DNA of 64,000 bases from Halorussus salinus (GCF_004765815.2 NZ_ML974127.1:1466927-1530926); one strand, 5' to 3'. Counted from the stretch's first letter, positions 2,714-34,980 are shown. Numbers and translations: made by a program. The notes: a model not told the origin generated them from the letters alone.

Positions 2714-2757
2714 AGTGCTCCGTTAGGGATTTGAACCCTAGTCCTTGCCGTGAGAGG
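2714..2757 (-). repeat. attL: 44-bp tRNA-Glu 3' fragment
   Basis: Identical base for base to 34904-34947. It contains the 3' acceptor strand, T arm and anticodon region of tRNA-Glu but no D arm or 5' acceptor strand follows, so it is an attachment-site remnant and not a tRNA gene. Confidence 0.9.
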
Positions 2758-2964
2758 CCAACCCAACTCGCCACATCAAACCGACCAACTTACCGGAACC
2801 CCTCACACCAATCCCCGGTCTGAACTGATGACACCCCGATTCTCAACGTCGCACCTTATAAATCACCTGTTCATTGCCACCTAGGCAACCTCGACTCACC
2901 GGATTCTTTTATCCAATGTCCCGGCCATAATACTATGGTTCGGTCGAAGTCCCTTAGCGGCGTA
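2758..2964. other. Left end of the element, non-coding
   Basis: No convincing gene. Three CCAAC words occur in 2758-2789, directly inside the left attachment site, mirroring a similar cluster near the right end. The remainder is AT-rich. Confidence 0.4.
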
Positions 2965-5022: not shown

Positions 5023-8000
5023 ATGACTCTCCAGCAGATTACGACAGACGATATCGCTGACTGGGACTCTCTTGACGCCATTGCCACCTCTTTTGAGAAG
5101 CGCGGACTGAAGCCGAAACCGGATCTCGGCGACGACAACGAGCTTGTCCTCCAGGTTTCCGATCGTGAGTTTATCGTTCTCGTCGAAGCAGGCCCCGGTG
5201 AATCGGCCTCAGATTTCAAGCCAGACGACCGCAGACGTCGAACGAACCTTGTCGCCACCAACGACTACGAGGAATTCACGTTCCTTACTCGCACCCGGGC
5301 ACTTGACGGACAACAACACGGGCGTATCAAACACCAGAAGCTCTCGTTCACGAAAGAGCAAATGACCAGCAAGGGTGGCGAAAAGAACACCATCCTCCAG
5401 AAACTCAACAGTCTCGAATACGACTCACCAGCAGCAATCTCCGACGATCTCTACGACACCAAGCAAGTCGTCAGGGAGTTCTACCAAGAATTTGAGGAAC
5501 TCCGCACCTATCTCGTGCAGGAAGTTACTGGCATCCCGGACGACCGTGGTGACGCGAAGCAACGCTATGTCCAGATCACCCTCGACCGGATGATCTTCCT
5601 TTACTTCATCCAAGAGAAACGCCTTCTCGACCGCAACCCGAACTATCTCCACGAACACCACGAACAACGGGCAAAAAACGGTAAAGACACCTATGAGTCA
5701 TTCTATGAGCCGCTCTTCTTCGAGATGCTCGCAGAAGGTAAGCAAAACCTCGACTTCGGCTCCCTTCCGTACCTCAATGGTGGCCTGTTCTCGAAGAACC
5801 CCATCGAAGAAGAATTCGAAGACGCCCGACTCGGCGATACACCCGAGCACACCAACGAACTGTTTGGAGACATTCTTGACTTCCTTTCAGACTGGAACTG
5901 GAACGTTGACGAGCGACTCGACATCGTCGACCCCAAGAACCTCTCACCAGCCGTCCTTGGTCACATCTTCGAGCAGACGGTCAACCAGAAGGAGATGGGG
6001 GCGTACTACACGCCCGAAGAGATTACCGGGTTCATGTCCCGGCGGACGATTCATCCGTACCTCCTTGACCAGCTCAACGAAGAAGTGGGTGCCAAATACG
6101 ATGAGATTGACGACGTGTTCGGGTTCCCTGCTCCGGACGCTGAGAGTGGCGTGGAGGCGCTCGCCGATGGTGGGGTAGTCACGGAACAAATCCCAACCGA
6201 GAACGTCGAGACACGGCACGTGGAGACGCTGTATCACGACTTCCTAAAGGATACTCGCGTTGTTGACCCTGCGGTGGGCAGCGGCGCATTCCTACTTGCG
6301 GCTCAGGAAGTCCTGCTGGACATCTATATGCAATGTATCGAGTTCTTTCAGCAGATGGATGACGAGGGGAAAACGTGGGAACTGGAGGAACGCACTGTTG
6401 AGGAACTGGAGCGTATCAATGAGGGTCGTGGAAGCGCTTCCTTATATGCGAAGCGGACAATCATTCTCAACAACCTGTATGGCGTGGACATTGACGATGG
6501 TGCCGTTGAAATCTGTAAGCTTAGATTGTGGCTCTCTATGGTGGCGGATATCGAAGATGAACCGAGTGAAGTCGAGCCATTACCAAATATCGACTTCAAT
6601 ATCCGTCAGGGGAACTCACTAATCGGCTTTACTGATATAGTCGAACTTACAGACGATGGAGATGCCTCACTCAATAATTGGGGCGCTGGTGCAGGGACTG
6701 GAGTCAAAGAGCTCTACGAAGACGTTATCGAAGCGATTGAGCGCCACCGTAGTGCTACGAGTGCCCAAGATGCGGCAAATGCACGGCGCGTGGCGGAGTC
6801 AAAAATCTCCTCACATAGCGGAGAACTTGACGAAAAGGTGATTGAACAGTTCCACGCAGCCGGGTTAGAGTCAGTTGATCAGGACTCTATTAAAGATTTC
6901 AATCCGTTCCACTGGGTTCTCGAATTTGCTCCGGTCTATGAGGCTGGTGGTTTCGACGTGGTGATTGGGAATCCCCCATGGGATCGGATTAAACCACTGC
7001 GGGATGATTTCTTCTCCAAATATGATGAGACATTCCGTACACGTCTTCCAGACGACAAAGATAGTGTCCAAGAGGAACTGCTCTCTGACGAAGAGATTGC
7101 GCAGGAATGGCAGGAGTACCAAGACGAGATAGAACTACGTGCTGAGTATTTCAAGAACACACCAGCGTACGATCTACAACGGCCTGAGATTGACGGACGA
7201 ATCAACCCTAGCACGAATGACCTTTCATCGTTGTTCTTTGAGCGTGTGTTCAGTTTGGCAGGAGACGATTCTCGCGTCGCGCAAATTCTTCCAGGCGCAA
7301 TTTTCAATGGCGCGTCGGGCAAAGATCTAAGAACACATCTGCTGAACAACACGCAACTAGATGTACTGAACCTGTTTGAGAACCACGGCATCTTTGACGG
7401 GGTTGATGACCGGTATATGTTTGGTGTGGTGGTTTTCAAGAATGAAGGCTCTACAGATTATGTCTCTGGAAGATACCAGGCAGGCGACCTCTCTATCTTT
7501 GATAACTTCGGCGAAAGAGCAATCCGAATCCCCCGGGATGTCCTTGAACTCTATTCACCAAAAGCGCGCATCTTCCCCCACATCGAATCTGAACGCAAAT
7601 TAGAGGTGCTCAAATCCATTATCCAGAACCCGGCTATCGCTCCGGATGACGCTCCAAACGGGTACATGGAACCGTATCAAGGACTCCGCCGGACAAGTGA
7701 CTCTGATCGTTTCGTCGATAAGTCTGAGGCAGAGTATCCCGTATACGGCGGGAAGAACATCTACCAATATTCATACACTCCCGAATTCATCAGTGACGTG
7801 CAGGAACCGGAGTTCTGGAGCGTTGAGGAAGAAACTGATCCCTCTCGCAGTGCCAAACAACGGATGCGAGAGAAAACCGTACGTGACCTCAAGTCCGCCA
7901 TCTATGATGCGTTTGAGGGCACGGGATCTCAGAAGGGGTTTGTCAATGACCTACTAGAACAACACCGTGGTAAACCTCTCTCAGAAAGCGACGTTCTCCT

Positions 8001-8631
8001 TGATTCTACAGAGTACCGGATTGGACTTCGCCGGATAGCTCGTTCAACCGACGAACGGACACTCATCGCCACGGTATTGCCGAAAGGCATTGTCTGCCAT
8101 AATACGTTATTGACTATCCCCAGCTACCTGATAACCCCCTACGAGGAGGGACTGTCGGAAGAACCCCTCCACAACTTCTACGAGAGTATGTTCACTGGCG
8201 ATGAACTGTTCGCCAAACTGGGATTGCTCAACTCCATTCCGTTGGATTATCTACTCAGGACAAAGGTCGATACGGGGATTGTGATGTACAAATTCAAAGA
8301 GTCCCAAATGCCCGACCTCACCGATGGTGACAACTGGTTCCACTACATTTCTGAGCGTGCTGCCCGACTGAGCTGCTACGGTGAGGAGTTTGCAGAAATG
8401 CGCGAACGACTTGGTGGTATAGAGCCCGCGACTAACACTCAGGAGCGCCAAGAGATACAGGCTGAGATTGATGCTGCTGCGTTCCATGCATACGGGTTAG
8501 AACGGCGGGAAGTCCAGTTCATTCTTGATGACTTCCATCGGGTAACAAATCCACGAATGATGACGGAGAACTACTTCGATATGGTATTCGAGAAATTCGA
8601 CCTGTTAGAGGAAGAAGGCCCCTTCAAGTAA
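5023..8631 (+). CDS. Eco57I/PglX-type adenine-specific DNA methyltransferase (defence module)
   Basis: This 1202-residue protein is predicted to place N6-methyl groups on adenine in DNA. The SAM-binding motif DPAVGSGAFLL starts at residue 415 and the catalytic NPPW at residue 650. The helical segment around residues 185-205 (DRMIFLYFIQEKRLL) is the one seen ahead of the methylase in PglX, DrmMI and type IIG enzymes. The region after 700 should hold target recognition. I see no clear PD-(D/E)XK nuclease in the first 180 residues, so it may be methylase only, with cleavage supplied by neighbours. The next gene begins 27 bases downstream on the same strand. Two genes facing it on the other strand encode a second nuclease and a PLD-SNF2 helicase. 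It could instead be a stand-alone type IIG enzyme. Confidence 0.88.
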   Translation: MTLQQITTDDIADWDSLDAIATSFEKRGLKPKPDLGDDNELVLQVSDREFIVLVEAGPGESASDFKPDDRRRRTNLVATNDYEEFTFLTRTRALDGQQHGRIKHQKLSFTKEQMTSKGGEKNTILQKLNSLEYDSPAAISDDLYDTKQVVREFYQEFEELRTYLVQEVTGIPDDRGDAKQRYVQITLDRMIFLYFIQEKRLLDRNPNYLHEHHEQRAKNGKDTYESFYEPLFFEMLAEGKQNLDFGSLPYLNGGLFSKNPIEEEFEDARLGDTPEHTNELFGDILDFLSDWNWNVDERLDIVDPKNLSPAVLGHIFEQTVNQKEMGAYYTPEEITGFMSRRTIHPYLLDQLNEEVGAKYDEIDDVFGFPAPDAESGVEALADGGVVTEQIPTENVETRHVETLYHDFLKDTRVVDPAVGSGAFLLAAQEVLLDIYMQCIEFFQQMDDEGKTWELEERTVEELERINEGRGSASLYAKRTIILNNLYGVDIDDGAVEICKLRLWLSMVADIEDEPSEVEPLPNIDFNIRQGNSLIGFTDIVELTDDGDASLNNWGAGAGTGVKELYEDVIEAIERHRSATSAQDAANARRVAESKISSHSGELDEKVIEQFHAAGLESVDQDSIKDFNPFHWVLEFAPVYEAGGFDVVIGNPPWDRIKPLRDDFFSKYDETFRTRLPDDKDSVQEELLSDEEIAQEWQEYQDEIELRAEYFKNTPAYDLQRPEIDGRINPSTNDLSSLFFERVFSLAGDDSRVAQILPGAIFNGASGKDLRTHLLNNTQLDVLNLFENHGIFDGVDDRYMFGVVVFKNEGSTDYVSGRYQAGDLSIFDNFGERAIRIPRDVLELYSPKARIFPHIESERKLEVLKSIIQNPAIAPDDAPNGYMEPYQGLRRTSDSDRFVDKSEAEYPVYGGKNIYQYSYTPEFISDVQEPEFWSVEEETDPSRSAKQRMREKTVRDLKSAIYDAFEGTGSQKGFVNDLLEQHRGKPLSESDVLLDSTEYRIGLRRIARSTDERTLIATVLPKGIVCHNTLLTIPSYLITPYEEGLSEEPLHNFYESMFTGDELFAKLGLLNSIPLDYLLRTKVDTGIVMYKFKESQMPDLTDGDNWFHYISERAARLSCYGEEFAEMRERLGGIEPATNTQERQEIQAEIDAAAFHAYGLERREVQFILDDFHRVTNPRMMTENYFDMVFEKFDLLEEEGPFK

Positions 8632-8658
8632 GATCATCAACGATATCGTCCACTACAA

Positions 8659-9477
8659 ATGGTTTATCACGTTGACGGGAAGAGGGTTACAGCACTTGAC
8701 CCAACAAGCTTCGACTCTCTTGACCTGACGGAAGCGGACATTGAGGAGTGGATTATCGAGACACCCTCGATACTTGGTGAAGACCTACTCGTAGTCGCGT
8801 CACAGTACGCAAAGTTCGACCGGGCAGCGGAGCGCCCCGACGTCTTGGCTCTCGATCCGGACGGGAAGCTCGTGGTAATTGAGGTGAAGCGAGACCGCGC
8901 AGACAAGACGACTGATCTCCAAGCCATCAAATACGCGAGCTACTGTTCAACTATCAGCGCCGAAGAGCTTCAGCAGGATTATCGGGCGTTCTGGAATAAG
9001 CGCCGCGATGAAGACGACCAGCTGACGCCTGAGAAAGTGGGCGAGCGGTTCACTGAATTCCTTGGTGAGGACATCGTCTTGACAGAAGACGGCTACGCCG
9101 ATTTCGTGCTGGACGACCGGCCACGGATCTTGTTAGCAGCGGGGGGCTTCGGCCCGGAGATTACCACACCCGTTGTCTGGCTCGAACGCGAGTACGGAAT
9201 GGACATCACCTGCATCGAACTGGATGTACACCAACGGGACGAAGAGGTGTTTGTTAGTGCTCGACAGGTACTCCCGATTCCCGAGGCCGAAGAGTACATG
9301 GCCAAGCGACGTCAGAAGGAGCGACAACAGAGTCGGTCGTCGAGTCGAGCCGAGAGGGCGATCACTGTCCTACTTGAGGCGGGACTCGTCGAGGAAGGGG
9401 ACATCGTCCTGTTCGATGGTGAAAGCCTTCCAGACGACGCTGAGAGAGAATATGATTCAGAGGACGACTTCTGGTGA
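8659..9477 (+). CDS. NucS/DUF91-like PD-(D/E)XK endonuclease, apparently cut by an in-frame TGA
   Basis: The 272-residue product has the nuclease core RPDVLALD...LVVIEVKRD, with candidate metal ligands Asp61, Glu75 and Lys77, followed by a helix with KYASYCS as in NucS-like and restriction-associated nucleases. A basic linker (about residues 214-232) leads to the C-terminus, which stops with TGG TGA. The same frame then stays open for 70 more codons that read as a folded domain (9478-9687). A single C-to-T change of CGA to TGA would explain this. Translation is likely coupled with the methyltransferase 27 bases upstream. Role inferred: restriction nuclease, or modification-dependent partner, of the module. 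Confidence 0.82.
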   Translation: MVYHVDGKRVTALDPTSFDSLDLTEADIEEWIIETPSILGEDLLVVASQYAKFDRAAERPDVLALDPDGKLVVIEVKRDRADKTTDLQAIKYASYCSTISAEELQQDYRAFWNKRRDEDDQLTPEKVGERFTEFLGEDIVLTEDGYADFVLDDRPRILLAAGGFGPEITTPVVWLEREYGMDITCIELDVHQRDEEVFVSARQVLPIPEAEEYMAKRRQKERQQSRSSSRAERAITVLLEAGLVEEGDIVLFDGESLPDDAEREYDSEDDFW

Positions 9478-9690
9478 GGCCGAATCACCGGGAAAACAGG
9501 ACGGAGTGACAACGTCGAGTGGTTGGAGAACGGTGCAGAATACTCGTTCACTGCCCTCGCCCAGGAGGTACTCGAACAAGCGACGGATCGCGAATTCAAT
9601 GTCAATGGCTACCCGTACTGGCTACACATAGAGCATGACATAAGTCTCTCCGAACTCAGACGGTCGAAGGTTGGCGATATTGACTGGTGA
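9478..9690 (+). pseudogene. In-frame C-terminal continuation of the NucS-like gene after a TGA stop
   Basis: Seventy sense codons followed by TGA at 9688, in the same frame as 8659-9477. The peptide includes ITGKTGRSDNV, EYSFTALAQ and NGYPYWLH, the pattern of a small C-terminal domain (RAMA/DUF4357-like, ending in an NGW-like motif) common on restriction-associated proteins. No start codon with a ribosome site is visible, so it is best read as the tail of the upstream gene, separated by a nonsense mutation, a sequencing error or a recoded stop. Confidence 0.65.
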
Positions 9691-9758
9691 ACGTGTTGAA
9701 CTAGGGGACACCAATTGAGGCACTCCCCCTGAGAAGTATTTTTGGAACGAAGATACGC

Positions 9759-10706
9759 CTATTCCACTGGAACTTGGTCATATTCCAGTGTAACTCCGTA
9801 TCGCTGTAGGGTTATATTGGCTTCCTCAAGCTCCGATTCTATTCCTTCATAGTCATAGAAGTCTTCAGCCACCAGAACCCCCTGCACCAGTTCCTCCCTT
9901 TCCGACCTGATATCTTGGAGGTATTGTTTGAGTTGTCGGACAGCGCTGGGGCCCGCGGCCCCTACCTTAGTCTCCACTACCGTTGTTACTGACTCACTCG
10001 ACAGAAAGACGAAATCCGCGAACTGTTCATTCTCTGTCTGGTACTCCCTCTTTATATCCTCGGAAACGATATTTGCGTTGTCTTGGAACTTCTCTGGATT
10101 ATCCCGTAAATGGGCTTGAATGACGCTTTCGTCAAACTCAAAATCATACGACTTTGGCTGGATTTTCGGTGCAGATTGTAGCTCCTCAACCAATACTTCT
10201 AGACTGTCTTTCTCCGCAGGATTCCATTGCTGGAGAGTGTTCGGGAGATGCGTCGATGATCTCTCCTTAGGCTGGAACTTCGTTGATAGCTCGTCTCGTA
10301 CTACTGGCCCGCCGTTGTATTTCCATTCAGCAACGTCTCGATGGAGTTGGTGTGGGAAATCCTCGTGAATTCTTTCGTCTTCCCAGTCAATGTCCCCGAC
10401 CTCTGCGACTCCTCGAATTACACTCTTGCCGCGGATTTTACGTTGACCGACTATAATGACGATGTCCCCCTCTTCCATGGGGGTTCTATCCTTGTGCTCG
10501 TGGCCTGCAAAGCACTTCACGACACTAAGGATATATCCGGGAGATTGGTCATACTGGCCCTCAATACTATCAATAATGTCACTATCCGGTACCTCCTCCA
10601 CAACTTGTTTTGAAGCTTTCTCCCACCCAACAGATACGATGTCTTCTTGATCCCAATAAGGGAAGTATTCCTGGTGACCCGACTTAATCAAATAGCAGGT
10701 TGGCAC
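9759..10706 (-). CDS. PUA-like (EVE/ASCH-type) domain fused to a NucS-like nuclease domain
   Basis: The 315-residue product has two parts. Residues 1-150 resemble the PUA-like domains that recognise modified bases: a SVGW segment near 25, GYILSVVKCF near 57, then MEEGDIVIIV and a VIRGVAEVGD strand. Residues 185-310 form a PD-(D/E)XK nuclease core with FADFVFL (Asp231) and VVETKVG (Glu245, Lys247), followed by a QLKQYLQDI helix. This is the architecture expected of an enzyme that reads base modification and cuts. It is transcribed with the PLD-SNF2 helicase gene, whose stop lies 77 bases upstream, and converges on the methyltransferase pair. Function is inferred from architecture only. Confidence 0.8.
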   Translation of the reverse strand: MPTCYLIKSGHQEYFPYWDQEDIVSVGWEKASKQVVEEVPDSDIIDSIEGQYDQSPGYILSVVKCFAGHEHKDRTPMEEGDIVIIVGQRKIRGKSVIRGVAEVGDIDWEDERIHEDFPHQLHRDVAEWKYNGGPVVRDELSTKFQPKERSSTHLPNTLQQWNPAEKDSLEVLVEELQSAPKIQPKSYDFEFDESVIQAHLRDNPEKFQDNANIVSEDIKREYQTENEQFADFVFLSSESVTTVVETKVGAAGPSAVRQLKQYLQDIRSEREELVQGVLVAEDFYDYEGIESELEEANITLQRYGVTLEYDQVPVE

Positions 10707-10783
10707 ACCTCTTTCATTTCGCGACCACTTAATAAAGGTATGTGCAAGACCGCGCTGGTAAAACCAACGTCAAAGAAAAGTGG

Positions 10784-13700
10784 TTATGAGCCGATAACTC
10801 CCCAACAGATGAGTCGGGCCTGGACAGCACTCTCTCCAACAAGTGTGGTCTGGTATTCTTGGGACGCTTCGATGTTGTCCTCGATGAAAGCCTCCAGTTC
10901 GTTCAAGAACTCCTTAACCGGCCAGTCACCGAGCGACGTGTAGTCAGGGTGTTCCCGGAAGGTCTCCCGCAATATTCGGTCTTCGTCCGTATTCTTGAGA
11001 CTCACCCGATCGAACTGATCAAATAGCGCATCCGTCCACTCTCCGACCGTATCATACCTGTCCACCGGTGCAGGTTCATCACCGTACTGTGGCTGGATTC
11101 GCATCTGCATCATATCCAACACCATTTCCTGGGTTGCTGACTGACCACCGCCACTGAACACTTCCTCAACCTGCCCCTCTCGAACCGCTTCCAACCGTTC
11201 GGAGAGTTGCTCTTCTATCGCCTCCCGGTTCGCAAGAATCCTGTCAGTGTTCCCTGACAGGTGTTCCCCTTCAGTGTCTGGTGCAATACTGAGTGACCCG
11301 ACTGGGCGCTCCTTGATGTCACCACTAAACGGTTTGTAGTACAATGCTCGCCGTACACGCCCAAGCGGTGCCTCTTCGGGTTCGCCAGTATCCTTGTTCT
11401 CGAACCACAGATGGACGAGCCCGAACACACCAGGACGTGGGCCACTATCGTGGTCGGTGGCGTTCGTGTAGAGAAAATCCCGGTCATCGGTCGGCTCACT
11501 GAAGTACCCTTCCGCAAATTCAAAATCGTCGGATGAGAGTCCATAGTCCTCGTTCAGCTCTTCTTTGAGGAGCACACGTTCGAATGCCGCGTTCTCGTCA
11601 CTACCAGCATTCCGCAGTAATGGATTCTTCGAGGTGTCGTCCAACTCGTTGTAGTCGTCTACCTTCCGAGACCCTCGGATAGAAGACTCAATTTCCTCAA
11701 TCTCCAGTTCACCAATGGTTTTCTCAGTCTCAACCCCCGCTTTCTCCAGCACTGCATCCTCGTTTGGGTCGAGAATATTGTTCTCCTTGCCGACGATGAG
11801 CGCGATGTCGTTGATCTTCGCCTGCAAGCGCTCAAGGAGCTTGATCGCAGCTTCGATGTCGCCATCGGGGTAGAAGTTGTGGACGTACTTGTCTGCTGTC
11901 GAGCCGATGCGGTCGATGCGGCCAACACGCTGGACGATTCGCATGGGGTTCCACGGAAGGTCGTAGTTGACGACAACTGAGATGTCCTGAAGGTTCACAC
12001 CCTCGCTCAGGGTGTCTGTCGCAACCACGTACTGCAATTCTGTTTCATTACTCTCGGCTAGCGTCTGCTGGTACCCTGACGCCTCTGGGGCGAATCGTTT
12101 GATGATGTTTTGTTTGTTTTCGTCACCCCCTTTTACGACGGCACTATTTTCCGTCGTCATGGGTGAGTTCTCGTCGTTGACGAGTGTGCGATGGACGTAG
12201 TCGGCAGTTGCGCGGTATTGGGTGAAGATGAGTACCTTCTGGTCGTACTCATTCAGGACATTGGAGAGGCGATTGATTTTGGGGTCACGGAACTCGCGGA
12301 GGGCGAACACGCCTTCGTAGAAGTCCCGGGTGGCACTGTCGGCGTCACTCAAATCTTGTTGGGGATAGAGGACGGGGTTCGGGTCATCTTCGGGTATGTC
12401 CGGAAGCACTGCTGCACCGTGGTTGGCGAGCCATTGTTCCAGTTCGACTTCCATGTCCGCAATCGTCCCGGAGTCTTTGGCAACGCGACCGATGAATCGG
12501 GAGAGGAAGTACGCGAGGAGCGTCAAGTCTTCGCGGATGTATGTTTTCACCTCGCTTACTGTGACTTCCGTCAGTTCGTTGTCTGTGTCGTCCTCGTTTG
12601 CTTGAAGGGCACCACTGTCGAACCCGAATTCCTCAAGGGTTTGCTCCAGGTCTTCAGCGGCGTCTGAACCCTCCACAAAATCACCGATTGTCGTGTCTGC
12701 GTCGTCGTCCTTGATGGTGCGGAGGACATCGATGTCTTCGTCTTCCGGTAGTCCGTCGAGGAAGCCAAGGAGTGCCCGTTCACTCTCGTGTAACGTCTGT
12801 ATCGATTGGACGAAGGCGTAGGTGGATGATTCGAGGCGTTTCAGCAGATTGAGTTTGTAGAGTGCTTTCAGTGTCCCACCGGCCTGGGGGTTCTTGATGG
12901 AGATGTGTGGGAGGTGCAGTGCATCCATCACGTCCGGGAGCATTCGATAGATTGGCTGGTAGGCAGGCGGCAGTGAGTACTGTTCTTTGTGGAGCTCCGG
13001 TGGTTTGAAGCTCATCTCGAAGTCGTCTTGGCCGGTCAGCGTCTCTTTGACGTGCTTTCGAGTGCGGAGCACCATCACTTCATTAAGAATCTCGGAGATT
13101 TCCTCGGAGTGGCGCTTCAGTTGCTCTGTCATCTGGCGCTGCTCTTCCTCGGTGGCTTCGTCTTTACCGGCGGCCACTCGCTTGCGCTCCTCGGCAAGGT
13201 CGATGTACTCGTCGAAGGCACTGAACTTCAGCGACGCCTTGTTCATCAACTCGTTTTCGTCGGTGAACAACCCGATGAGGTTCTTGAGGTCAGTAGCTGA
13301 GTTGTTGATCGGCGTCGCGGTCAACATTACCATTGTGTTGTCGCGGAGGAGACGAAGGTTCGCGTGCCGCCGAGTTCCTTTGTAATCATCGTTGTGATCC
13401 GGGTTTGGTCGCCACTTCCCGTGGTTTCGGAATCGATGTGCTTCGTCGATGAGCACCACATCGAATTGATCGTCCAGGTCGTTTACTTCCTCGTGTGTGA
13501 GGTTCTGGAACTGGCTGATGCTCATGACCTGAATGTGTTTTCCGTCCACTTCGAGACCGAAGTACGGCTCACCGTCCTCGTCAGTCGCGTCTTCGAGGAG
13601 CTCTCGCCACTGATCGGTCAGGTTGGCCGGAACGACGAGGAGGCACCGATCCCCTTGTTCCCGGTAGTCGTAGAGGAGTTCGCTTCCGATGAACGACTTT

Positions 13701-14584
13701 CCCAACCCGACAGAGTCAGAGATTATACACCCATCGTACTGTGACAACTTTGTTTTCGCGCTCTCGTAGCCGAGTGACTGGAAGTGGTAGAGGGGGCTGT
13801 CTCGAGAGGTTACGTTACCATCGAGTTCGTCATAGGCGAGAAGTTTGTACATCTCGAATGGTTCGAGGTAGGTGCCGAACTCCTCGGTTTCATCGTCATC
13901 AGTGTGCTTCTCTTGGTCTTTCCAGTCTTGGTATCTGCTGCTGTTTTCAATGATGTTGACGAGGTCGTCGCTGAAGTCTTCGGCATTGGCCCATTGGTTG
14001 TCGAACCAATCTTCGAAGGCTTCCGCGTCGCCGCGTTCCTGACTGGTGAGGTTCAGCTCGACGTTTCGTTGGTGGCCGCTGGCGGAGAAATTCGATGACC
14101 CGACGATAGTGACGGCAGGGCGGCGGTCAGTATCGCCTTCGCGGTCGTCTGGACTGTTGGGGGTGCCGCGGAAACAGGCGCCTTTGGCGTGGAAGTACCC
14201 GTTTTCTGGCACCTGTACTCGGATGTTGACTTTGTCGTTGGCGATGAAGTCGCGGAGGCGGTCGAGACGGTCGAGTTGTGCGTTGTTGAGTTCAGCGATG
14301 TCGTCTTTGACTTCCTGCCGGAATTGGCCACGGAGCGTTTGGCCAGATTCGATTTCTTCGGCGGTTTCGGTGTTCGTCTGGCGTCCCATCAGAATGCGGA
14401 ACGGTGCATTATTTAGGGTGTCTGGGTCGCGTAGGTTGGTGAGATCGTCTTTGAAGAGGTTGAACCCTGAAAGGTAGAAATAGCCCGTTGCAATACGGAT
14501 TTCTTCGCTTTCAGGAATGACCTTCTTGTATGTCTCTTCGAGCGTGGTCTCGGTGTTGTCGATGAGGGGGTCAAGAGAGAGCAT
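10784..14584 (-). CDS. PLD-domain SNF2-family helicase (defence module)
   Basis: I start at ATG 14584, giving 1266 residues, because the upstream extension is atypical. Residues 1-170 form a phospholipase D-like domain with HAKGACF near 132 and GSSNFS near 162, which could act as a nuclease. The SF2 helicase core follows: Walker A VGLGKS near 292, DEAH near 380, TATPINN near 421, then the C-terminal half with FTQYRATADYV, SEGVNLQ and the arginine motif QRVGRIDRIG. About 350 further residues have no recognisable domain. DISARM (DrmD plus the PLD protein DrmC) and Mokosh systems use the same activities. The core DISARM genes drmA and drmB are absent. Predicted role: DNA translocase and nuclease cooperating with the facing methyltransferase. 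Confidence 0.88.
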   Translation of the reverse strand: MLSLDPLIDNTETTLEETYKKVIPESEEIRIATGYFYLSGFNLFKDDLTNLRDPDTLNNAPFRILMGRQTNTETAEEIESGQTLRGQFRQEVKDDIAELNNAQLDRLDRLRDFIANDKVNIRVQVPENGYFHAKGACFRGTPNSPDDREGDTDRRPAVTIVGSSNFSASGHQRNVELNLTSQERGDAEAFEDWFDNQWANAEDFSDDLVNIIENSSRYQDWKDQEKHTDDDETEEFGTYLEPFEMYKLLAYDELDGNVTSRDSPLYHFQSLGYESAKTKLSQYDGCIISDSVGLGKSFIGSELLYDYREQGDRCLLVVPANLTDQWRELLEDATDEDGEPYFGLEVDGKHIQVMSISQFQNLTHEEVNDLDDQFDVVLIDEAHRFRNHGKWRPNPDHNDDYKGTRRHANLRLLRDNTMVMLTATPINNSATDLKNLIGLFTDENELMNKASLKFSAFDEYIDLAEERKRVAAGKDEATEEEQRQMTEQLKRHSEEISEILNEVMVLRTRKHVKETLTGQDDFEMSFKPPELHKEQYSLPPAYQPIYRMLPDVMDALHLPHISIKNPQAGGTLKALYKLNLLKRLESSTYAFVQSIQTLHESERALLGFLDGLPEDEDIDVLRTIKDDDADTTIGDFVEGSDAAEDLEQTLEEFGFDSGALQANEDDTDNELTEVTVSEVKTYIREDLTLLAYFLSRFIGRVAKDSGTIADMEVELEQWLANHGAAVLPDIPEDDPNPVLYPQQDLSDADSATRDFYEGVFALREFRDPKINRLSNVLNEYDQKVLIFTQYRATADYVHRTLVNDENSPMTTENSAVVKGGDENKQNIIKRFAPEASGYQQTLAESNETELQYVVATDTLSEGVNLQDISVVVNYDLPWNPMRIVQRVGRIDRIGSTADKYVHNFYPDGDIEAAIKLLERLQAKINDIALIVGKENNILDPNEDAVLEKAGVETEKTIGELEIEEIESSIRGSRKVDDYNELDDTSKNPLLRNAGSDENAAFERVLLKEELNEDYGLSSDDFEFAEGYFSEPTDDRDFLYTNATDHDSGPRPGVFGLVHLWFENKDTGEPEEAPLGRVRRALYYKPFSGDIKERPVGSLSIAPDTEGEHLSGNTDRILANREAIEEQLSERLEAVREGQVEEVFSGGGQSATQEMVLDMMQMRIQPQYGDEPAPVDRYDTVGEWTDALFDQFDRVSLKNTDEDRILRETFREHPDYTSLGDWPVKEFLNELEAFIEDNIEASQEYQTTLVGESAVQARLICWGVIGS

Positions 14585-15379: not shown

Positions 15380-15519
15380 TCTCACAACATAGGCTGATCG
15401 ACCCATGTTAGCAACCGATCTACGAGGACATCAAGGTCACGCAGAGTTAGAGGCGTTTAGCGAGGGTTTTCGCCATCCTTGGGTTGAACAGACACAAAAT
15501 AACCAGAGGAGCGAAGACA

Positions 15520-16656
15520 ATGACTGAGTCGGAACCACGTGACGAAAACGGGACGAGCGACGGTAACACAGAAACTCACGACCCAGTAGCCACCTTAATT
15601 GAGAAAATCTGCACGACGGACTTCGACACGTGGTATCGAGAACGGCAGTTCGTGCAAAATATTCGAGAGGGCCAACCCTATTTCAACGGGCCAAGCCCTT
15701 GTCGCGACCCAAGATACCACACCCCGAACAAACTGAACCAGTGTCACAGAAAAATCTACTACGACCGACTCAACGCTCCTGAAGAGCAACCAGAACCGGA
15801 GGGCCTCTTCTGGTTTGGAACGAAATTCGAGGAAGAACTCGCGATGGAGTACCTCGAAGACACCGTCAAGCCTCATAGGTATGTTCGCAATTCGATTTGG
15901 CTTGACTTCACGATCGAAACCGAAACGGACAACCTGCGGTTCCGAGGCGAGACTGACCCCGTTGTTGTCGACAAAGACGGCGTACCTTACCTCCCGACGG
16001 AAGTGAAGACGACAGAAGTCGATAATCTGACTAAGCCGAAAAAACGCCATCTTGCACAGGTACACGCGTACCTCTATGGGTTGTCGCAAGAGTACGATCG
16101 AGAGTTTACGGCGGCTGTGCTCTTGTATACCCACCGGAAAACGTTTAGCTTCACCCCCTTTGAGGTTGAGTTTGATTCTGAGTTTTGGCGCAACACGGTT
16201 GTTGAGTGGGCGGAAACACAGACTCAATATCGACAGGACGAGATCCTTCCCCCAGCTGATCCCGAATTAGAATGGGAGTGCGAATACTGTGATTACAAAC
16301 ACCGATGTGGGGAGGGTAACACGAATTACGAAAATGGAGGGGTTCGTGGATTTTTACCGTTGTTCGCAGAGTATCCCCGCGACAAGGTAGAGGAGTACCT
16401 CGAAGTATATTCAGACGTAGGTGCGAAACTGACGCCAACGTTGGCTCACCACTATCCGGACTTAGCCAATCGGTTCGAGGTAGATGATTGGCAGTGTGAG
16501 GCCTGTGAAACTACGCAGCAGTGGGATTCCGTTGACTGGAATGGGAATGTTGACCGTCCACCCTTATGTCCACAGTGCGAAAAGGATGGGATTCCTGCAC
16601 CACTCAGTGGGCCAGCACCAACGGAGTCGGCTTTTGAAAGGGAGGCGTTCCAATGA
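15520..16656 (+). CDS. Cas4-like PD-(D/E)XK nuclease with iron-sulphur-type cysteines
   Basis: I start at ATG 15520 (378 residues), preceded by a GAGGAG ribosome site; an upstream ATG at 15484 is less likely. The Cas4/RecB-type core is clear: FGTKFEEEL, RGETDPVVV (Asp146), TEVKTTE (Glu161, Lys163) and AQVHAYLYG (Gln180). One Cys in NQCHRKIYYD (75) and three in CEYCDYKHRC (254, 257, 263) match the Cas4/AddB iron-sulphur cluster pattern. An extra zinc ribbon follows at the C-terminus (CEAC...CPQC). Cas4-family enzymes are usually exonucleases. There is no CRISPR array or cas1 here; the stop codon overlaps the TFB gene by four bases, so the two are translationally coupled. Confidence 0.85.
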   Translation: MTESEPRDENGTSDGNTETHDPVATLIEKICTTDFDTWYRERQFVQNIREGQPYFNGPSPCRDPRYHTPNKLNQCHRKIYYDRLNAPEEQPEPEGLFWFGTKFEEELAMEYLEDTVKPHRYVRNSIWLDFTIETETDNLRFRGETDPVVVDKDGVPYLPTEVKTTEVDNLTKPKKRHLAQVHAYLYGLSQEYDREFTAAVLLYTHRKTFSFTPFEVEFDSEFWRNTVVEWAETQTQYRQDEILPPADPELEWECEYCDYKHRCGEGNTNYENGGVRGFLPLFAEYPRDKVEEYLEVYSDVGAKLTPTLAHHYPDLANRFEVDDWQCEACETTQQWDSVDWNGNVDRPPLCPQCEKDGIPAPLSGPAPTESAFEREAFQ

Positions 16657-17447
16657 CGGATTCACTGGAGTCCTTCAAAACACAGTGTCCGAACTGTGGA
16701 TCAACAAACCTTGATGAAGAATGGGAGGACATTGACGCAGTGTGTTCTACTTGTGGGTTTGTTATTCATAGCTATGAAAACCCCGACAGCCACTTGACCT
16801 CACAAAATCGAGGGAATCGACAGGGTACTGGAACCGAACAGACGACACGATGGGAAGACCACCATACAGTAACTAACAGTACCGAACAACGAATCGCATC
16901 TGCATTCGAATCTCTTGAAGAAATCGGTGACGCACTGCATTTGTCGAATGATGCCCGAAAGCGAGCAGCATCAATGTTTGCGACATTGGCGAAGAAAAAC
17001 TTGGTTGACGGACGATCTACGGAGGTAGTAGTCGCCACTACTCTCTATTTTGCGGCACGACAAGTTAAGCGTCCTCGACCGCTCGCACGAATTGCTGAAG
17101 AAGTTGACACGGAACCGAACAAAATCGACCGACTTTCCCGATCACTCCGTTCAGAATTGGCTTTCGAATTTAAAAGTTGTACTCCCAAAGATTACCTTCC
17201 CTACCTTTGCGAGGAGCTTGGTTACGAGGAGAGTGTCGAAGATGAGGCACGCACTCTTTGTGCCAAAGCCGAAGAATCAGGGTTGACGAACGGGAAAAGT
17301 CCAGTCGGTGTAGCCGGTGCAGTACTCTACTTGGTAGGGGATAAATCCGAAACTCAGCAAGAGATGGCAGCAACAGTGGGGGTATCAAAGGAAACGATTC
17401 GGTTACGACTCAAAGAATTTCGGGATGGAGGGTTGGTTGATGATTGA
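16653..17447 (+). CDS. tfb: Transcription initiation factor TFIIB paralogue (TFB)
   Basis: The 264-residue protein has the N-terminal zinc ribbon (Cys12, Cys15, Cys31, Cys34) and two cyclin-like repeats (about 75-160 and 170-262), ending in the helix-turn-helix that binds BRE (ETIRLRLKEF). It is shorter than housekeeping haloarchaeal TFBs (about 320 residues), and the B-finger/linker after the ribbon is short. Haloarchaea use multiple TFBs for alternative gene programmes. One carried on an integrative element between a nuclease and a recombinase could redirect RNA polymerase to element promoters. ATGA overlaps with the genes on both sides indicate a single transcript. Confidence 0.93.
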   Translation: MTDSLESFKTQCPNCGSTNLDEEWEDIDAVCSTCGFVIHSYENPDSHLTSQNRGNRQGTGTEQTTRWEDHHTVTNSTEQRIASAFESLEEIGDALHLSNDARKRAASMFATLAKKNLVDGRSTEVVVATTLYFAARQVKRPRPLARIAEEVDTEPNKIDRLSRSLRSELAFEFKSCTPKDYLPYLCEELGYEESVEDEARTLCAKAEESGLTNGKSPVGVAGAVLYLVGDKSETQQEMAATVGVSKETIRLRLKEFRDGGLVDD

Positions 17448-18366
17448 ATCCCACGCAGGCCTCGGGCAAGTAACGTCGGAACAGGAGTTGAGTCGGGCAG
17501 CAATATATGTCAGGACTTCATCGGGGAATCAACAATATGGATACTCAATTGAGGAGCAAGTACGACAGTGCACAAAACGTTGTGAATTTCTTGGTTGGGA
17601 CATTGTCTATATTTTCCGTGATCGAGCAGAGAGTGGAAAAGATACCGAACGACCGATGTTCCAACGAATGATGCAGGCGGCAAAAACGGGTTGCTTTGAT
17701 GTCGTTGTTTTCTGGAAGCTGGATCGGTTTTCAAGGAGTCTCCTGCATGCAGTTCAGCTCGAAAAGACACTCCGGGAGTGTGGAGTCGCCCTCCATAGCG
17801 TTACTGAGCAAATTGATACCACAACTTCGGCTGGACGATTCAATTTCCGGAACATCGCGAATGCGGCTGAATTCGAACGGGAAATGATCAGTGAACGCTC
17901 TCAAATGGGGTTGAAGGCACTTGCCTCAGAGTACCGTTGGCCCAATGATCATCCTCCGTTGGGATATCGAAGAACCTCAGACGGAACATTGGAAGTTGAT
18001 GACACCGAAGCGAATCTCGTCGAGGAAATATTTGAGATGTACTTAGACAGGCAATCAATGCCAGAAGTCGCGCATGAACTGAACAACAATGGATTGTCGA
18101 CCAAGACTGACGGTGAGTGGACGCACAGAGCGGTTCGAGATGTACTGACGAATGATCTCTATATTGGGGTGTATGCGGTGGCGGGCGTGAAAGACTATGT
18201 CCCCGAATACAGAATTATATCAAAGAATCTTTTTAAAGAAGCCATCTCTGTCCGTCACCGGTTCAATTCAGAATCAACTTCTCAACGCCCAGAAATGGGT
18301 GCGCAAAGGAAAAGCAAAAACGTAGACGCTATTCTCGAAAAGTACAAGGATTTTGTTAATAGATGA
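17440..18366 (+). CDS. Large serine recombinase, operon partner of TFB
   Basis: ATG 17440 overlaps the end of the TFB gene by eight bases and gives 308 residues. The resolvase domain starts with AAIYVRTSSGNQQ, with Ser27 the likely nucleophile, and includes FWKLDRFSRS and the E-helix with EFEREMISERSQMG. A recombinase domain follows (PPLGYRR, then a DNA-binding region with VRDVLTNDLYIG). It lacks the long coiled-coil and zinc ribbon of phage integrases of 450-550 residues. Convergent with another serine recombinase whose stop is 69 bases away. A DNA inversion, excision or transposition role is inferred. Confidence 0.9.
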   Translation: MIESHAGLGQVTSEQELSRAAIYVRTSSGNQQYGYSIEEQVRQCTKRCEFLGWDIVYIFRDRAESGKDTERPMFQRMMQAAKTGCFDVVVFWKLDRFSRSLLHAVQLEKTLRECGVALHSVTEQIDTTTSAGRFNFRNIANAAEFEREMISERSQMGLKALASEYRWPNDHPPLGYRRTSDGTLEVDDTEANLVEEIFEMYLDRQSMPEVAHELNNNGLSTKTDGEWTHRAVRDVLTNDLYIGVYAVAGVKDYVPEYRIISKNLFKEAISVRHRFNSESTSQRPEMGAQRKSKNVDAILEKYKDFVNR

Positions 18367-18435
18367 TGGTTCCCGGAGCTATCCCAAACAGCTCCAAAAT
18401 TCATTGACAGGAGGGGGTGTACATAGGACTTCCAG

Positions 18436-19584
18436 TTATTCGTCAAGAAGCTGATCACGAATCTCTGGTGATGAGCGGAGAAGTTCGAGAAGCTTCATCG
18501 CGTCCAATTCGTCCTCTCGGGGCCAAACCCGTTGCTGTTCACATTCTTTATTCGAGCATTTATACAGATACCGATCAGTGGAATCATGCAATGACCGTGG
18601 GCCGTTTTCCACCATTAGCGATCGGCAACATGGGCAGTGGATTTCAGTAACGGGACTTGTTTCGAGAACAATAAACACCCCATACTCGTCAACAAAATCA
18701 TCAACGTCTTTCGCACTGTTCTCCTGTGAGTTTTCCCTGGAGATTTTACGAATTGTCTGTTGAGCCTCCTCCCAGAGGTCTTCATCGACGAGTTGGAGAT
18801 TTGGTTCGTCAATCCAGCCCTTGTGGTCATATCCGTCAACACGTTCGATGGGAATCGACGGTTGGCCTATATATATCGGGTTTTTCAAACATCTTTTCAC
18901 TTCGCCTTCCGTGAGTTCTGACTCGAGATACTTCCACTTTGTACAATTAAGTAGATTCGTGGTTTTTGCGTACGATTCTGTCATGAGGAAGTGATTGTAC
19001 ATCGAACGGGCGAGGTTACGGGATTGTTCTTTTGGTGTGGGCCATCTAGAGGTCAGGACATACCCTATGGGTACGCTGTTGTACCAAGCATCCCAGTTCT
19101 TGTCTTCGAGGAAGGAGCGTGCCTTTGCCCGCAAGGCCTTCGACCCCTGCTTTTGAACGTCCAACTCTGCGAAAAGTGTCTGCATTGTTGTGTTTATCTT
19201 CCCAGAGAAGCTATCAAAATCTAAATCACCATCGAGAGTGATGATTTGAACATCTAGCTCAACCTCAAGTTCATGGATGAAGTACAATGTCTGAACGTGA
19301 CTACGACCTAATCGGTCAATCGAATCCACAAAGAGATGGGAGATTGTACCGTTCTTTGCAAGCCGAAAGACCGTTCTGATACCACTCCGGTTGAAGTCTG
19401 TCCCAGTTTCGCCCTCATCGCGAATCGGGTCTCGGACAAGTCCGACCTCTCGTCTCTCTGCCTCTTTCTTCAATTGGTCAACCTGTGCTTCTAGGCTTCT
19501 CCCTTCCTCCGCCTGTTTGTTACTACTCACCCTCGCGTAGATGACTCCGCCAACACATTCTTCATCCATCATTCTCATCTCCAC
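18436..19584 (-). CDS. Second serine recombinase, with C-terminal zinc ribbon
   Basis: The 382-residue product has a resolvase domain beginning VIYARVSSNKQ (Ser20 likely nucleophile), FVDSIDRLGRS near 86, and a recombinase domain ending around IYIGQPSI. The C-terminal zinc ribbon CPCC...CSNKEC is typical of large serine recombinases and may help recognise its site. It is only distantly similar to the facing recombinase at 17440. Its start overlaps the end of the 132-codon ORF, which in turn overlaps the tyrosine integrase gene, so one transcript may encode two chemically different recombinases. Confidence 0.88.
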   Translation of the reverse strand: MEMRMMDEECVGGVIYARVSSNKQAEEGRSLEAQVDQLKKEAERREVGLVRDPIRDEGETGTDFNRSGIRTVFRLAKNGTISHLFVDSIDRLGRSHVQTLYFIHELEVELDVQIITLDGDLDFDSFSGKINTTMQTLFAELDVQKQGSKALRAKARSFLEDKNWDAWYNSVPIGYVLTSRWPTPKEQSRNLARSMYNHFLMTESYAKTTNLLNCTKWKYLESELTEGEVKRCLKNPIYIGQPSIPIERVDGYDHKGWIDEPNLQLVDEDLWEEAQQTIRKISRENSQENSAKDVDDFVDEYGVFIVLETSPVTEIHCPCCRSLMVENGPRSLHDSTDRYLYKCSNKECEQQRVWPREDELDAMKLLELLRSSPEIRDQLLDE

Positions 19585-19960
19585 CGTTGAAAGACTCCTC
19601 GTCGCTTACGAGCCAACTCTGACCAACCCCCAACCAAGAAGGTGATATTTTTGACATTGCGGCGGTACAAGCTCCAACCAGTTGGCCCTGAACCAAATCA
19701 CCAACAACCGGCTCTTTTGGTGCCTTATTTAAGTACTGGACAGGATTGTTTATGTAATGTATGAGACGGTCTGCGATGGCTGAGCGACTCCTACGCATTA
19801 TATGTATGTTGGCCAACTGCGTAAGCCCCTCCAACACCCTCTCGTTCTGACATCCAACTCTACCAACCTCCAAACTACGGATAGTGGTCTGAAAACTTTG
19901 ACCGCACGCCAACACACAACAACAACTACTCATCCCCTTCGATGTGATATTCCAGTTCAT
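19562..19960 (-). CDS. Uncertain 132-residue ORF between integrase and serine recombinase; CCAAC-rich DNA
   Basis: ATG 19960 overlaps the integrase stop as ATGA and the ORF end overlaps the recombinase start, which suggests translational coupling. The product has no recognisable domain; its N-terminus holds a CCC triplet and its centre a basic helix (RRSRSAIADRLIHYI). Against a gene, the plus strand of this interval carries about nine CCAAC words plus two GTTGG between 19612 and 19867, like the clusters at the two element ends, which suggests recombinase-binding DNA. It could be both. Confidence 0.4.
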   Translation of the reverse strand: MNWNITSKGMSSCCCVLACGQSFQTTIRSLEVGRVGCQNERVLEGLTQLANIHIMRRSRSAIADRLIHYINNPVQYLNKAPKEPVVGDLVQGQLVGACTAAMSKISPSWLGVGQSWLVSDEESFNGGDENDG

Positions 19961-21237
19961 TGGTTCTGGAGCACCTCCATGGGAACAGAAGAATCACCAG
20001 AGAGTGGGTGACCATCCGCTGAGTTAGTCTCACTAAGTACTGTCAATTGATCAAGCGCGTCACGGTACGCTTCCACTGGGATCTCCACGTAGACGAGTGT
20101 TGCTTGCATTGACATATGCCTAAGTTGACATTTAGCATGATGGAGACCCTCAACATAGGCCAAGTATGTTCCTGTCGACCTCCGGATCGACGTCCACGTG
20201 AGCCGCCTATTGGCCTGGCCAATCCCGGCTTCTTCCAAGAGATTATCCAATAGATAATTCAACGTCTTCGAACTGTACGGATTCCCTTCACGATTCAACC
20301 ACAGATGTTCGGACTCGTCATACTTGTGCAGAGACGACCGTTGTTTCTCCCAGCGATCCAATAGCCGAAGAGTTCGGCTACTCACGGGATTGTTCCAGTA
20401 TTGGTCGTTCTTGACCGCCCCTTCTTTTGGAATCTGAAACTCACCCTTCGCAGGTTTGTACCACTTAAGAAGACAACGTTCTATCAATTTTGGGCGCGGG
20501 CCAAGATCGAGACTTGCGCTAATCAGCGACGGGATTTCCCAACTCCGCCTGCATTGTTCGAAGTCGTCTGGAGTGACGTCTGATTTTGGTTTCCCCAGCT
20601 TCTGAGCTAGGTAGCCCTTCTGACGCTCCCGAGCCTCAGGTGAGAGGTCACTGTACCGTCCGAGGTCGTCATATGTGAGTGCGGCTTCGTAAAGTGCTTC
20701 TCGCTCTTCTAGCGTGAAGTAGTCCGACTGTTGAAAGTCCGATTGCGAAAACGTCAGGCTCGGCTTCCACGGTTCACCACCTTTCGTCCAGGAAACCCAG
20801 AGGAAATATTTCACGACGGCTTCTTGTAGTTTCCGCTTACTACTCTCTACATACGGCTCCCCGGACTCCTTCGTTACGTTGTCGTCCTTCAGATCTTGTT
20901 CGTATTCGTCAGCGTGTTCGTGCGTAAACCGCGTCGTGTACTTACCAAGTTGTTCCCAGACTCGTCGATGGAATTGGACGGTTCGACTGAAGACGATCGG
21001 GACATTACTTGAGGCAATTCCTTCATCTTCGTCCGGATTTTTCCCCTGTTCCCTTAGCCACACCACATATCCATGGTAGTGATCCTCCAAATCGACCACT
21101 TGGCGGTGGGAATACTCTTCTCGGAAGAAATCCGGAACCAACTGGATTGAGTAAGTCGTCTCCACACTGCGTTTGTCCCCGCCATTTTGTTTACTAATGT
21201 TCGTACGCTGCGTTTCAAATTCCGATTCGTTGTTCAT
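19957..21237 (-). CDS. Tyrosine recombinase paralogue, possibly impaired
   Basis: The 426-residue protein aligns along its length with the element integrase at 33415-34521: a SAM-like DNA-binding half with the shared pattern DLSPEAR...LAQKLGKPKSDVTPDDF, then the catalytic half. Arg of GPRPKL (GLRPIE in the paralogue), Arg of SIRRSTGTYL (AIRHSVGTYM there) and LRHMSMQATLVY with the final Tyr are kept, but the boxes around them have drifted, including loss of the His after Arg II. It may have changed specificity, serve as an accessory factor, or be decaying. It heads a leftward group with the 132-codon ORF and the serine recombinase. Confidence 0.85.
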   Translation of the reverse strand: MNNESEFETQRTNISKQNGGDKRSVETTYSIQLVPDFFREEYSHRQVVDLEDHYHGYVVWLREQGKNPDEDEGIASSNVPIVFSRTVQFHRRVWEQLGKYTTRFTHEHADEYEQDLKDDNVTKESGEPYVESSKRKLQEAVVKYFLWVSWTKGGEPWKPSLTFSQSDFQQSDYFTLEEREALYEAALTYDDLGRYSDLSPEARERQKGYLAQKLGKPKSDVTPDDFEQCRRSWEIPSLISASLDLGPRPKLIERCLLKWYKPAKGEFQIPKEGAVKNDQYWNNPVSSRTLRLLDRWEKQRSSLHKYDESEHLWLNREGNPYSSKTLNYLLDNLLEEAGIGQANRRLTWTSIRRSTGTYLAYVEGLHHAKCQLRHMSMQATLVYVEIPVEAYRDALDQLTVLSETNSADGHPLSGDSSVPMEVLQNQ

Positions 21238-34521: not shown

Positions 34522-34905
34522 AGGTGCACCCCGACTGTAGATCTGCCCCCCGGCGAGACCAACCACCCAACAACCAACAATCGCCAACCAAACAATCGGC
34601 CTGGTACAGCAACTCAACTCTTGACGCCCTATGTTGCAAACTGTTACTGGATGTCCTATCTAGATTCTTGATCTGATCGACCCTTTCCGAATATCCAAGT
34701 GCATGTATGCACTGCCCTCTTCGAGGCCATTGCTGGACGGAACGCGAGGGGGTGTTGAATCCGGCGAGTCGACGTGCCGGACAACGAGCGTAGATCGCCA
34801 GACTGCGGGCTAATCGGATGTTCCGAGTTTCGTGATTGCCCTGTGGTGGCATGGTGATTCTCCTGTGCCACAGCTCAAAACCGGGAGACGGCGTAAGGAT
34901 GGGAG
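34522..34905. other. Right end of the element, non-coding
   Basis: No gene seen. Four CCAAC words sit within 30 bases at 34559-34588, probably integrase arm sites. The rest has no recognisable signal apart from the 3' flank of tRNA-Glu. Confidence 0.5.
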
Positions 34906-34947
34906 TGCTCCGTTAGGGATTTGAACCCTAGTCCTTGCCGTGAGAGG
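34904..34947 (-). repeat. attR: 44-bp repeat inside tRNA-Glu
   Basis: Exact copy of 2714-2757. It supplies the 3' part of the intact tRNA, so integration left the tRNA functional. Confidence 0.9.
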
Positions 34948-34980
34948 GCAAGATGATTGGCCGGACTACACCAACGGAGC
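34906..34980 (-). tRNA. tRNA-Glu (anticodon CTC)
   Basis: On the minus strand GCTCCGT pairs with ACGGAGC, the anticodon stem is TTGCC/GGCAA with loop CTCTCAC (anticodon CTC), and the T loop is GGTTCAAATCC. The discriminator is A and CCA is not encoded. It is the integration target of the element to its left. Confidence 0.95.

What the first reader, a model, noticed from the sequence alone, without database searches (positions are those of the whole stretch)
5023..14584. A four-gene convergent methyltransferase/two-nuclease/PLD-helicase module that fits no named defence system
Seen: an Eco57I/PglX-type adenine methyltransferase (motifs DPAVGSG and NPPW), a NucS-like nuclease, a PUA-like plus NucS-like nuclease, and a PLD-SNF2 helicase, all inside an integrated element and arranged as two convergent pairs. 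Known: DISARM uses an SNF2 helicase, a PLD protein and a methylase, but with drmA and drmB; Mokosh uses helicase and PLD; BREX uses PglX with pglZ and brxC. Here none of those core partners is present and two separate PD-(D/E)XK proteins are added. Inference: a self-contained system in which the methylase marks host DNA, the PUA-like nuclease reads modification, and the PLD-helicase clears foreign DNA.
Basis: partly seen in the sequence, partly recalled or inferred. Interest (0 to 1): 0.75.

Follow-up and report, generated by a model that had tools for sequence, protein, structure and literature searches.

The report
Two-gene restriction system with passenger nucleases
The four neighbouring genes are real, but only two of them (a DNA-marking enzyme and a DNA-cutting motor) form a widespread antiviral-type system, the other two being optional passengers; in relatives a dedicated recombinase flips the marking gene so that the DNA sequence the system recognises probably switches.

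Summary
The four genes exist as described, inside a 32.2-kb element integrated at tRNA-Glu. They are not a four-gene system. Across 50 full-length loci of the PLD-SNF2 gene (HEL) in 391 haloarchaeal genomes, the Eco57I-type methyltransferase (MT) is beside it in 49. The first NucS-like gene is there in 9, and the 315-aa gene in 1 (this window). Close relatives of the 315-aa protein lie inside type-1 BREX loci. The window's first NucS-like gene is cut short by an in-frame TGA.

The HEL+MT pair also forms a two-gene operon in many bacterial phyla. HEL co-evolves with the MT catalytic half (r=0.97) but not with its recognition half (r=0.22). The best reading is an ATP-dependent restriction-modification system in which MT supplies sequence specificity and the PLD-helicase cuts.

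Unexpected: 14 relatives carry a second, inverted MT recognition half, almost all with a dedicated tyrosine recombinase alongside. In one genome of the window's genus both orientations are present in the assembly. Specificity is therefore probably phase-variable in this family, though not in the window copy. I found no report of this in archaeal surveys. The helicase family is already listed in PADLOC (C3a139), so this is a new variant of a known kind.

The parts
2714..2761 (.). att repeat, far end of the integrated element (3' part of tRNA-Glu, 47/48 bp identical)
   Evidence: blastn of the tRNA-Glu region against the window
5023..8631 (+). MT: Eco57I/type IIG-like adenine methyltransferase, 1202 aa; residues 1-436 co-evolve with the helicase, residues ~560-1190 are the exchangeable recognition half
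   Evidence: (motif I D415PAVGSG and N650PPW invariant)
8659..9477 (+). NUC: NucS-like PD-(D/E)XK nuclease, PADLOC PDC-S11; optional accessory, C-terminal ~70 aa lost to an in-frame TGA at 9475-9477 (conserved frame stays open to ~9690)
9759..10706 (-). 315-aa protein: unidentified N-terminal half plus NucS-like PD-(D/E)XK nuclease; passenger whose close relatives lie in type-1 BREX loci
10784..14584 (-). HEL: N-terminal PLD (HKD) nuclease fused to SNF2 helicase, 1266 aa, PADLOC C3a139 HKD+Snf2; presumed restriction subunit
6328..6400 (+). stretch of MT (codon 436 on) equivalent to the 54-bp crossover repeat of the invertible relatives; single copy here, so no switching in the window
34904..34951 (.). 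att repeat at tRNA-Glu (34905-34980, - strand), near end of the element

Best explanation
The functional unit is the MT + PLD-SNF2 pair, an ATP-dependent restriction-modification system. MT recognises a DNA site through its C-terminal half and methylates adenine there to mark host DNA. The PLD-SNF2 protein has no recognition domain of its own; it docks on MT's N-terminal/catalytic half, and at unmethylated sites its SNF2 motor translocates and the PLD domain cuts. The two NucS-like genes are separately gained passengers in a slot between MT and HEL: one is a C-terminally truncated auxiliary nuclease, the other a nuclease otherwise found inside BREX loci. In relatives a tyrosine recombinase inverts the MT N-half between two different recognition halves and so switches specificity while HEL stays the same. 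Shown by sequence: the pairing, the co-evolution pattern, the passenger status and the inversion. Inferred: adenine methylation, complex formation, cleavage, that the neighbouring recombinase does the inverting, and that the change of half alters the site.
For: Pairing: MT lies beside 49 of 50 full-length HEL genes (the exception is a 7.5-kb contig), convergent in 46 of 49, most often with gaps of 7-70 bp. HEL relatives at 22-27% identity across many bacterial phyla pair with the same MT family on the same strand; the gap is under 60 bp or overlapping in 17 of the 30 that could be measured. Specificity comes from MT: over 820 haloarchaeal pairs, HEL identity tracks the MT N-half (r=0.965) but not the recognition half (r=0.224); 51 of 66 pairs with HEL at least 90% identical have recognition halves under 60% identical, and some recognition halves are 76-81% alike where HEL is only 59-74%. 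The contrast repeats in bacteria: r=0.817 before NPPW, 0.223 after. Passengers: NUC in 9 of 50 loci, the 315-aa gene in 1 of 50; its two close relatives (56-58%) sit in brxA-brxB-brxC-[gene]-pglX-pglZ-brxL. The slot holds oligonucleotide-cyclase-like genes in L066, and a PDC-S11 nuclease plus a weak HNH match in L100. Switching: 14 loci have an MT N-half head to head with a partial copy starting near codon 436 or 490, with exact repeats of 27-80 bp at the junction. In G384 (same genus) inverting 7157-8731 of L081 gives L082 with 0 mismatches over 4 kb. The recombinase at 73% identity or more occurs at 18 places, all beside such MTs.
Against: No activity of any member was measured here or found in the papers searched. 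The recognition half could simply evolve faster than the rest, although high identities at low HEL identity argue for exchange. The window's own copy has no second half and no recombinase, so switching cannot be claimed for it. The N-terminal domain of MT (1-110) gave no significant fold match (best E 0.066), so a second, degenerate or active nuclease there is not excluded. Convergent transcription in haloarchaea is less tidy than an operon for two subunits of one complex.
Confidence: 0.72

Rival explanations
1. All four genes are one system: MT marks, the 315-aa protein reads modification, and the nucleases and PLD-helicase clear foreign DNA.
For: All four are contiguous within 9.6 kb and paired in orientation; all keep catalytic motifs apart from the truncated end of NUC.
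Against: The set of four is unique to this window; close relatives of the 315-aa protein lie in BREX loci; NUC carries a stop here, a stop in G331 and is split in G345; no PUA-type match.
Confidence: 0.07
2. MT is a stand-alone type IIG-like enzyme and HEL an independent defence gene that merely share islands.
For: Stand-alone MT relatives without HEL are common: 90 of 391 genomes have an MT match, 45 have HEL.
Against: Adjacency in 49 of 50 loci and in distant bacteria, and r=0.965 co-evolution of HEL with the MT N-half. The stand-alone relatives compared have a different N-half (29% identity v 56-87% for HEL-linked ones), so the HEL-linked MT looks like a distinct, adapted form.
Confidence: 0.1
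3. The pair is mainly an epigenetic switch (phasevarion) and HEL restricts little.
For: Dedicated recombinase and inverted recognition halves in many relatives.
Against: HEL's PLD and helicase motifs are invariant across all haloarchaeal copies aligned; most loci, the window included, cannot switch.
Confidence: 0.06
4. A decayed DISARM or BREX-related (BR type 2) locus that kept its methylase and HKD-SNF2 helicase.
For: Weak DrmMI and DrmD matches; BR type 2 has an HKD-SNF2 helicase with an N6-MTase (PMC12839542).
Against: No third gene is conserved in 28 non-redundant HEL groups. PglZ is absent from the whole genome, DUF499 lies on another contig, and the only MZB/DUF1998 gene is 168 kb away. 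HEL scores 275 bits to C3a139 v 118 to DrmD and is under the curated cut-offs of all named helicases.
Confidence: 0.05

Closest known systems
PADLOC C3a139 'HKD+Snf2'
   Same: Same PLD(HKD)-SNF2 architecture; best family match, E 3e-82 over residues 5-980
   Different: A model name only; no mechanism, partner rule or paper was found for it
Type ISP / type I and III ATP-dependent restriction-modification (my knowledge: LlaGI, EcoKI)
   Same: Helicase-nuclease that takes specificity from a methylase with its own recognition domain
   Different: Cutter is a PLD nuclease on an SNF2 motor, on a separate polypeptide from an Eco57I-type MT
CglI / NgoAVII (my knowledge)
   Same: ATP-dependent restriction with a PLD nuclease, a helicase and a type II MT
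   Different: There the PLD protein has its own B3 recognition domain and the helicase is a separate protein
BREX-related type 2 (DUF499 + MTase + HKD-SNF2 + DUF3780; PMC12839542)
   Same: HKD-SNF2 helicase as presumed effector beside an N6-MTase
   Different: No DUF499 at the locus; different MT family (Eco57I/type IIG-like)
DISARM (drmD, drmMI, drmA, drmB, drmC)
   Same: SNF2 helicase, PLD nuclease and adenine methylase in one locus
   Different: No drmA/drmB; PLD fused to the helicase
Phase-variable type I systems switched by recombinase, e.g. pneumococcal hsdS/PsrA (PMC4948785)
   Same: Tyrosine recombinase inverts DNA to swap methylase specificity
   Different: Here, in relatives only, one Eco57I-type MT gene is split so that its upstream region and N-half flip between two C-halves; in archaea; linked to a PLD-SNF2 cutter

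Membership tests
C3a139 HKD+Snf2 (PADLOC) | N-terminal HKD/PLD nuclease fused to SNF2 helicase matching the model | tested here: met
   275 bits over 5-980; PLDc_2, SNF2-rel_dom, Helicase_C
DISARM | drmA and drmB present with drmC | tested here: not met
   no DrmA/DrmB at the locus; no conserved third gene in 28 groups; sole MZB gene 168 kb away
BREX | pglZ and brxC with pglX | tested here: not met
   PglZ absent from the genome; MT far under the BREX PglX cut-off, 67.6 v 500 bits
BREX-related type 2 | DUF499 ATPase in the locus | tested here: not met
   DUF499 only on contig C5; no conserved third gene near HEL loci
BREX-related type 2 | DUF3780 in the locus | tested here: inconclusive
   no match in the genome, but the search had no positive control
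Mokosh-like / phospholipase D anti-phage helicase | score over the curated cut-off of the named PLD anti-phage model | tested here: not met
   NF042964 151 v cut-off 1100 bits, best stretch in the helicase part
Type IIG enzyme | own N-terminal nuclease in the MT polypeptide | tested here: inconclusive
   no invariant D...ExK in residues 1-135; N-domain fold search not significant
ATP-dependent restriction-modification (type I/III/ISP-like) | translocase-nuclease dependent on the methylase for site recognition | tested here: inconclusive
   co-evolution with the MT N-half and not the recognition half; no biochemistry possible
Type IV / modification reader (315-aa protein) | PUA, EVE or ASCH reader domain | tested here: inconclusive
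   no match at E<5; model pLDDT 52
Phase-variable inverton (window copy) | second inverted copy, inverted repeats and dedicated recombinase | tested here: not met
   single MT in the window; no recombinase homologue in the genome at E<=1e-30
Phase-variable inverton (relatives) | inverted repeats, dedicated recombinase, both orientations observed | tested here: met

The most novel reading that the evidence does not exclude
A two-gene PLD-SNF2/methyltransferase restriction family, spread over bacteria and archaea, in which the cutter borrows its specificity from the methylase. In haloarchaea a dedicated tyrosine recombinase flips the methylase between two recognition halves, which would be the first recombinase-switched restriction-modification specificity described in archaea.
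Probability: 0.55. Interest if true: 0.7.

Novelty: new variant of a known kind. Interest (0 to 1): 0.55.

Why it matters
It replaces an over-built four-gene proposal with a testable two-gene one, and gives a reason from co-evolution why the PLD-helicase should depend on the methylase. The invertible relatives are a natural experiment: the same cutter with two methylase specificities, sometimes both orientations in one assembly. If confirmed, haloarchaeal populations would hold mixed restriction specificities, which bears on virus resistance and on gene exchange between cells. It also shows how nucleases move between BREX and other defence loci.

Tried and rejected
A four-gene unit: rejected by co-occurrence counts. 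DISARM, BREX and BR type 2 membership: rejected. Confirming the PUA domain: no family match, and the structure model of the 315-aa protein was too poor (pLDDT 52) to search. MT N-domain as a nuclease: the model of residues 1-110 is mostly confident, but the best fold matches (tRNA-splicing endonuclease, E 0.07) are not significant. Paper searches: C3a139 found nothing; PDC-S11 occurs in two papers that I did not read. Archaeal and haloarchaeal restriction surveys (PMC10609329, PMC6471742) mention neither a helicase partner nor an invertible MT in the passages searched; most subscription papers could not be searched. Switching in the window itself: no second half and no recombinase homologue in the genome at E<=1e-30. 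A first attempt to prove the G384 inversion by guessing breakpoints failed because the range tried was wrong; repeated correctly.

Full report
What is there. The four genes lie at MT 5023-8631(+), NUC 8659-9477(+), the 315-aa gene 9759-10706(-) and HEL 10784-14584(-). MT has the Eco57I domain with DPAVGSG and NPPW; HEL has an N-terminal PLD domain, an SNF2/ResIII motor and Helicase_C; both small proteins have NucS-like PD-(D/E)XK domains. The element is integrated at tRNA-Glu: a 48-bp repeat of the 3' part of the tRNA lies at 2714-2761 and 34904-34951. NUC is shorter than the 343-344 aa of its close relatives because of an in-frame TGA at 9475-9477; the frame beyond it is still conserved.

Are the four one unit? 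I searched 391 Halobacteria genomes with each protein, fetched the surroundings of the matches and mapped them. HEL: 50 full-length copies in 44 genomes, plus one fragment. MT is beside 49 of them, convergent in 46. NUC is there in 9, the 315-aa gene in 1. Thirty further named HEL loci from haloarchaea or close relatives, partly the same genomes, add no second case of the 315-aa gene. After collapsing near-identical HEL copies to 28 groups, only MT is present in all, and no other gene is common: the NucS-like cluster reaches 10 groups, a serine recombinase 8. So the module is HEL+MT.

The passengers. The two close relatives of the 315-aa protein (56-58% identity, G240 and G017) lie between brxC and pglX of a type-1 BREX locus; brxA, brxB, brxC, pglX, pglZ and brxL were identified by PADLOC and Pfam in L112, and L111 has the same gene clusters. 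The slot between MT and HEL holds other genes in other relatives: oligonucleotide-cyclase-like genes in L066, a PDC-S11 nuclease and a weak HNH match in L100, an unknown ~397-aa protein in L062 and L065. NUC is also damaged in G331 (stop) and G345 (split). That the 315-aa N-terminal half is a PUA-like reader could not be confirmed.

How widespread is the pair? HEL relatives at 22-27% identity in Pelagibacteraceae, Bacillota, Bacteroidota, Chlorobi, Aquificaceae, Planktothrix and others sit beside the same MT family. In 30 measurable cases the two are always on the same strand, usually HEL then MT, and in 17 of them overlapping or less than 60 bp apart. PADLOC has the helicase as C3a139 'HKD+Snf2'; I found no paper on that name.

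Where does specificity come from? For 41 haloarchaeal loci with a full MT and HEL (820 pairs), HEL identity correlates with MT residues 1-436 at r=0.965 and with residues 561-1050 at r=0.224 (Spearman 0.04). Of 66 pairs with HEL at least 90% identical, 51 have recognition halves below 60%, and the reverse case also occurs: recognition halves 76-81% identical with HEL at 59-74%. The window and G175 share a recognition half (84%), while G055, G329 and G331, equally close in HEL, have different ones (50-56%). Bacterial loci show the same contrast: r=0.817 before NPPW, 0.223 after. Pairs are not independent, but both halves of MT are compared over the same pairs. A cutter that ignores the recognition half while following the catalytic half is what a type I/III/ISP-like complex predicts. 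A type II endonuclease with its own recognition would have to change together with MT. This is the main inference of the report; cleavage and complex formation were not observed.

The invertible relatives. Fourteen loci carry an MT N-half and, head to head about 90-220 bp away, a second C-half starting near codon 436 or about 490. Identical stretches of 27-80 bp mark the junction. In G384, of the window's genus, one plasmid contig passes the locus twice. The passes are nearly identical outside the segment, and inverting 7157-8731 of L081 turns it into L082 with 0 mismatches over 4 kb. The contig's ends overlap (at least 99.9% identity, period 121,284 bp), which suggests an over-run circle sampled in two states; a true duplication is the alternative. 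G148 and G198, 98% identical around the locus, are also in opposite states, and G294 has both states on two contigs that are themselves 92-94% identical. A tyrosine recombinase (PF00589) stands next to MT; at 73% identity or more it occurs at 18 places, all beside such MTs, and a more distant tier (57-67%) includes three beside stand-alone type IIG-like MTs. By HEL similarity the 12 of these loci that could be grouped fall in 3 groups, 9 of them in one, so independent origins are few. The window copy is single and has no such recombinase in its genome.

Membership. Not DISARM (no drmA/B), not BREX (no pglZ anywhere in the genome), not BR type 2 (DUF499 only on another contig), not the named PLD anti-phage helicase (151 v 1100 bits). 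It works most like ATP-dependent restriction-modification and belongs by sequence to C3a139.

Verdict. The core pair is a real, widespread and apparently untested restriction-type system. The unexpected part is the inversion, probably recombinase-driven, of its specificity gene in close relatives, for which I found no precedent in the archaeal surveys I could read (PMC10609329, PMC6471742). That search covered open-access papers only.

Noticed in passing
window 21800-23107 (+): 435-aa ORF that clusters with the N-terminal part of type IIG-like MTs and shows a YPD...ENK nuclease-like motif but ends before any methylase domain; resembles the free nuclease fragment HVO_A0006 described in PMC4389544.
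   Followed up: partly
window 9475-9477: In-frame TGA truncates NUC; the copy in G331 has a TAG and the copy in G345 is split.
   Followed up: yes
window 15484-21237 and 33415-34617: Cas4-like PD-(D/E)XK gene, TFIIB-type gene, two serine recombinases and a tyrosine integrase in a row; a second integrase lies beside tRNA-Glu. The element looks composite.
   Followed up: partly
L106, L107, L108: Subclade in which HEL is flanked by two complete, different MTs on the same strand, perhaps two fixed specificities for one cutter.
   Followed up: no
L066 8813-12584: Two oligonucleotide-cyclase-like genes (CBASS type) sit between HEL and MT, as if the slot collects other defence genes.
   Followed up: partly
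L204, L205, L206 (G146, G237, G039): Recombinases 64-65% identical to the inverton one lie beside stand-alone type IIG-like MTs; specificity switching may extend to those.
   Followed up: partly
L090 (G376) 10818-13895: 3.1-kb palindrome (93% identity) holding two inverted copies of the MT N-half region, perhaps an assembly mixture of both states.
   Followed up: no
G000 contig C5, 487-494 kb: DUF499 match and an SNF2 helicase close together: probably a separate BREX-related locus in the window's genome.
   Followed up: no
L041 (G000 contig C7, 106200-107069): A second, distant (28%) copy of the 315-aa NucS-like protein in the same genome.
   Followed up: no
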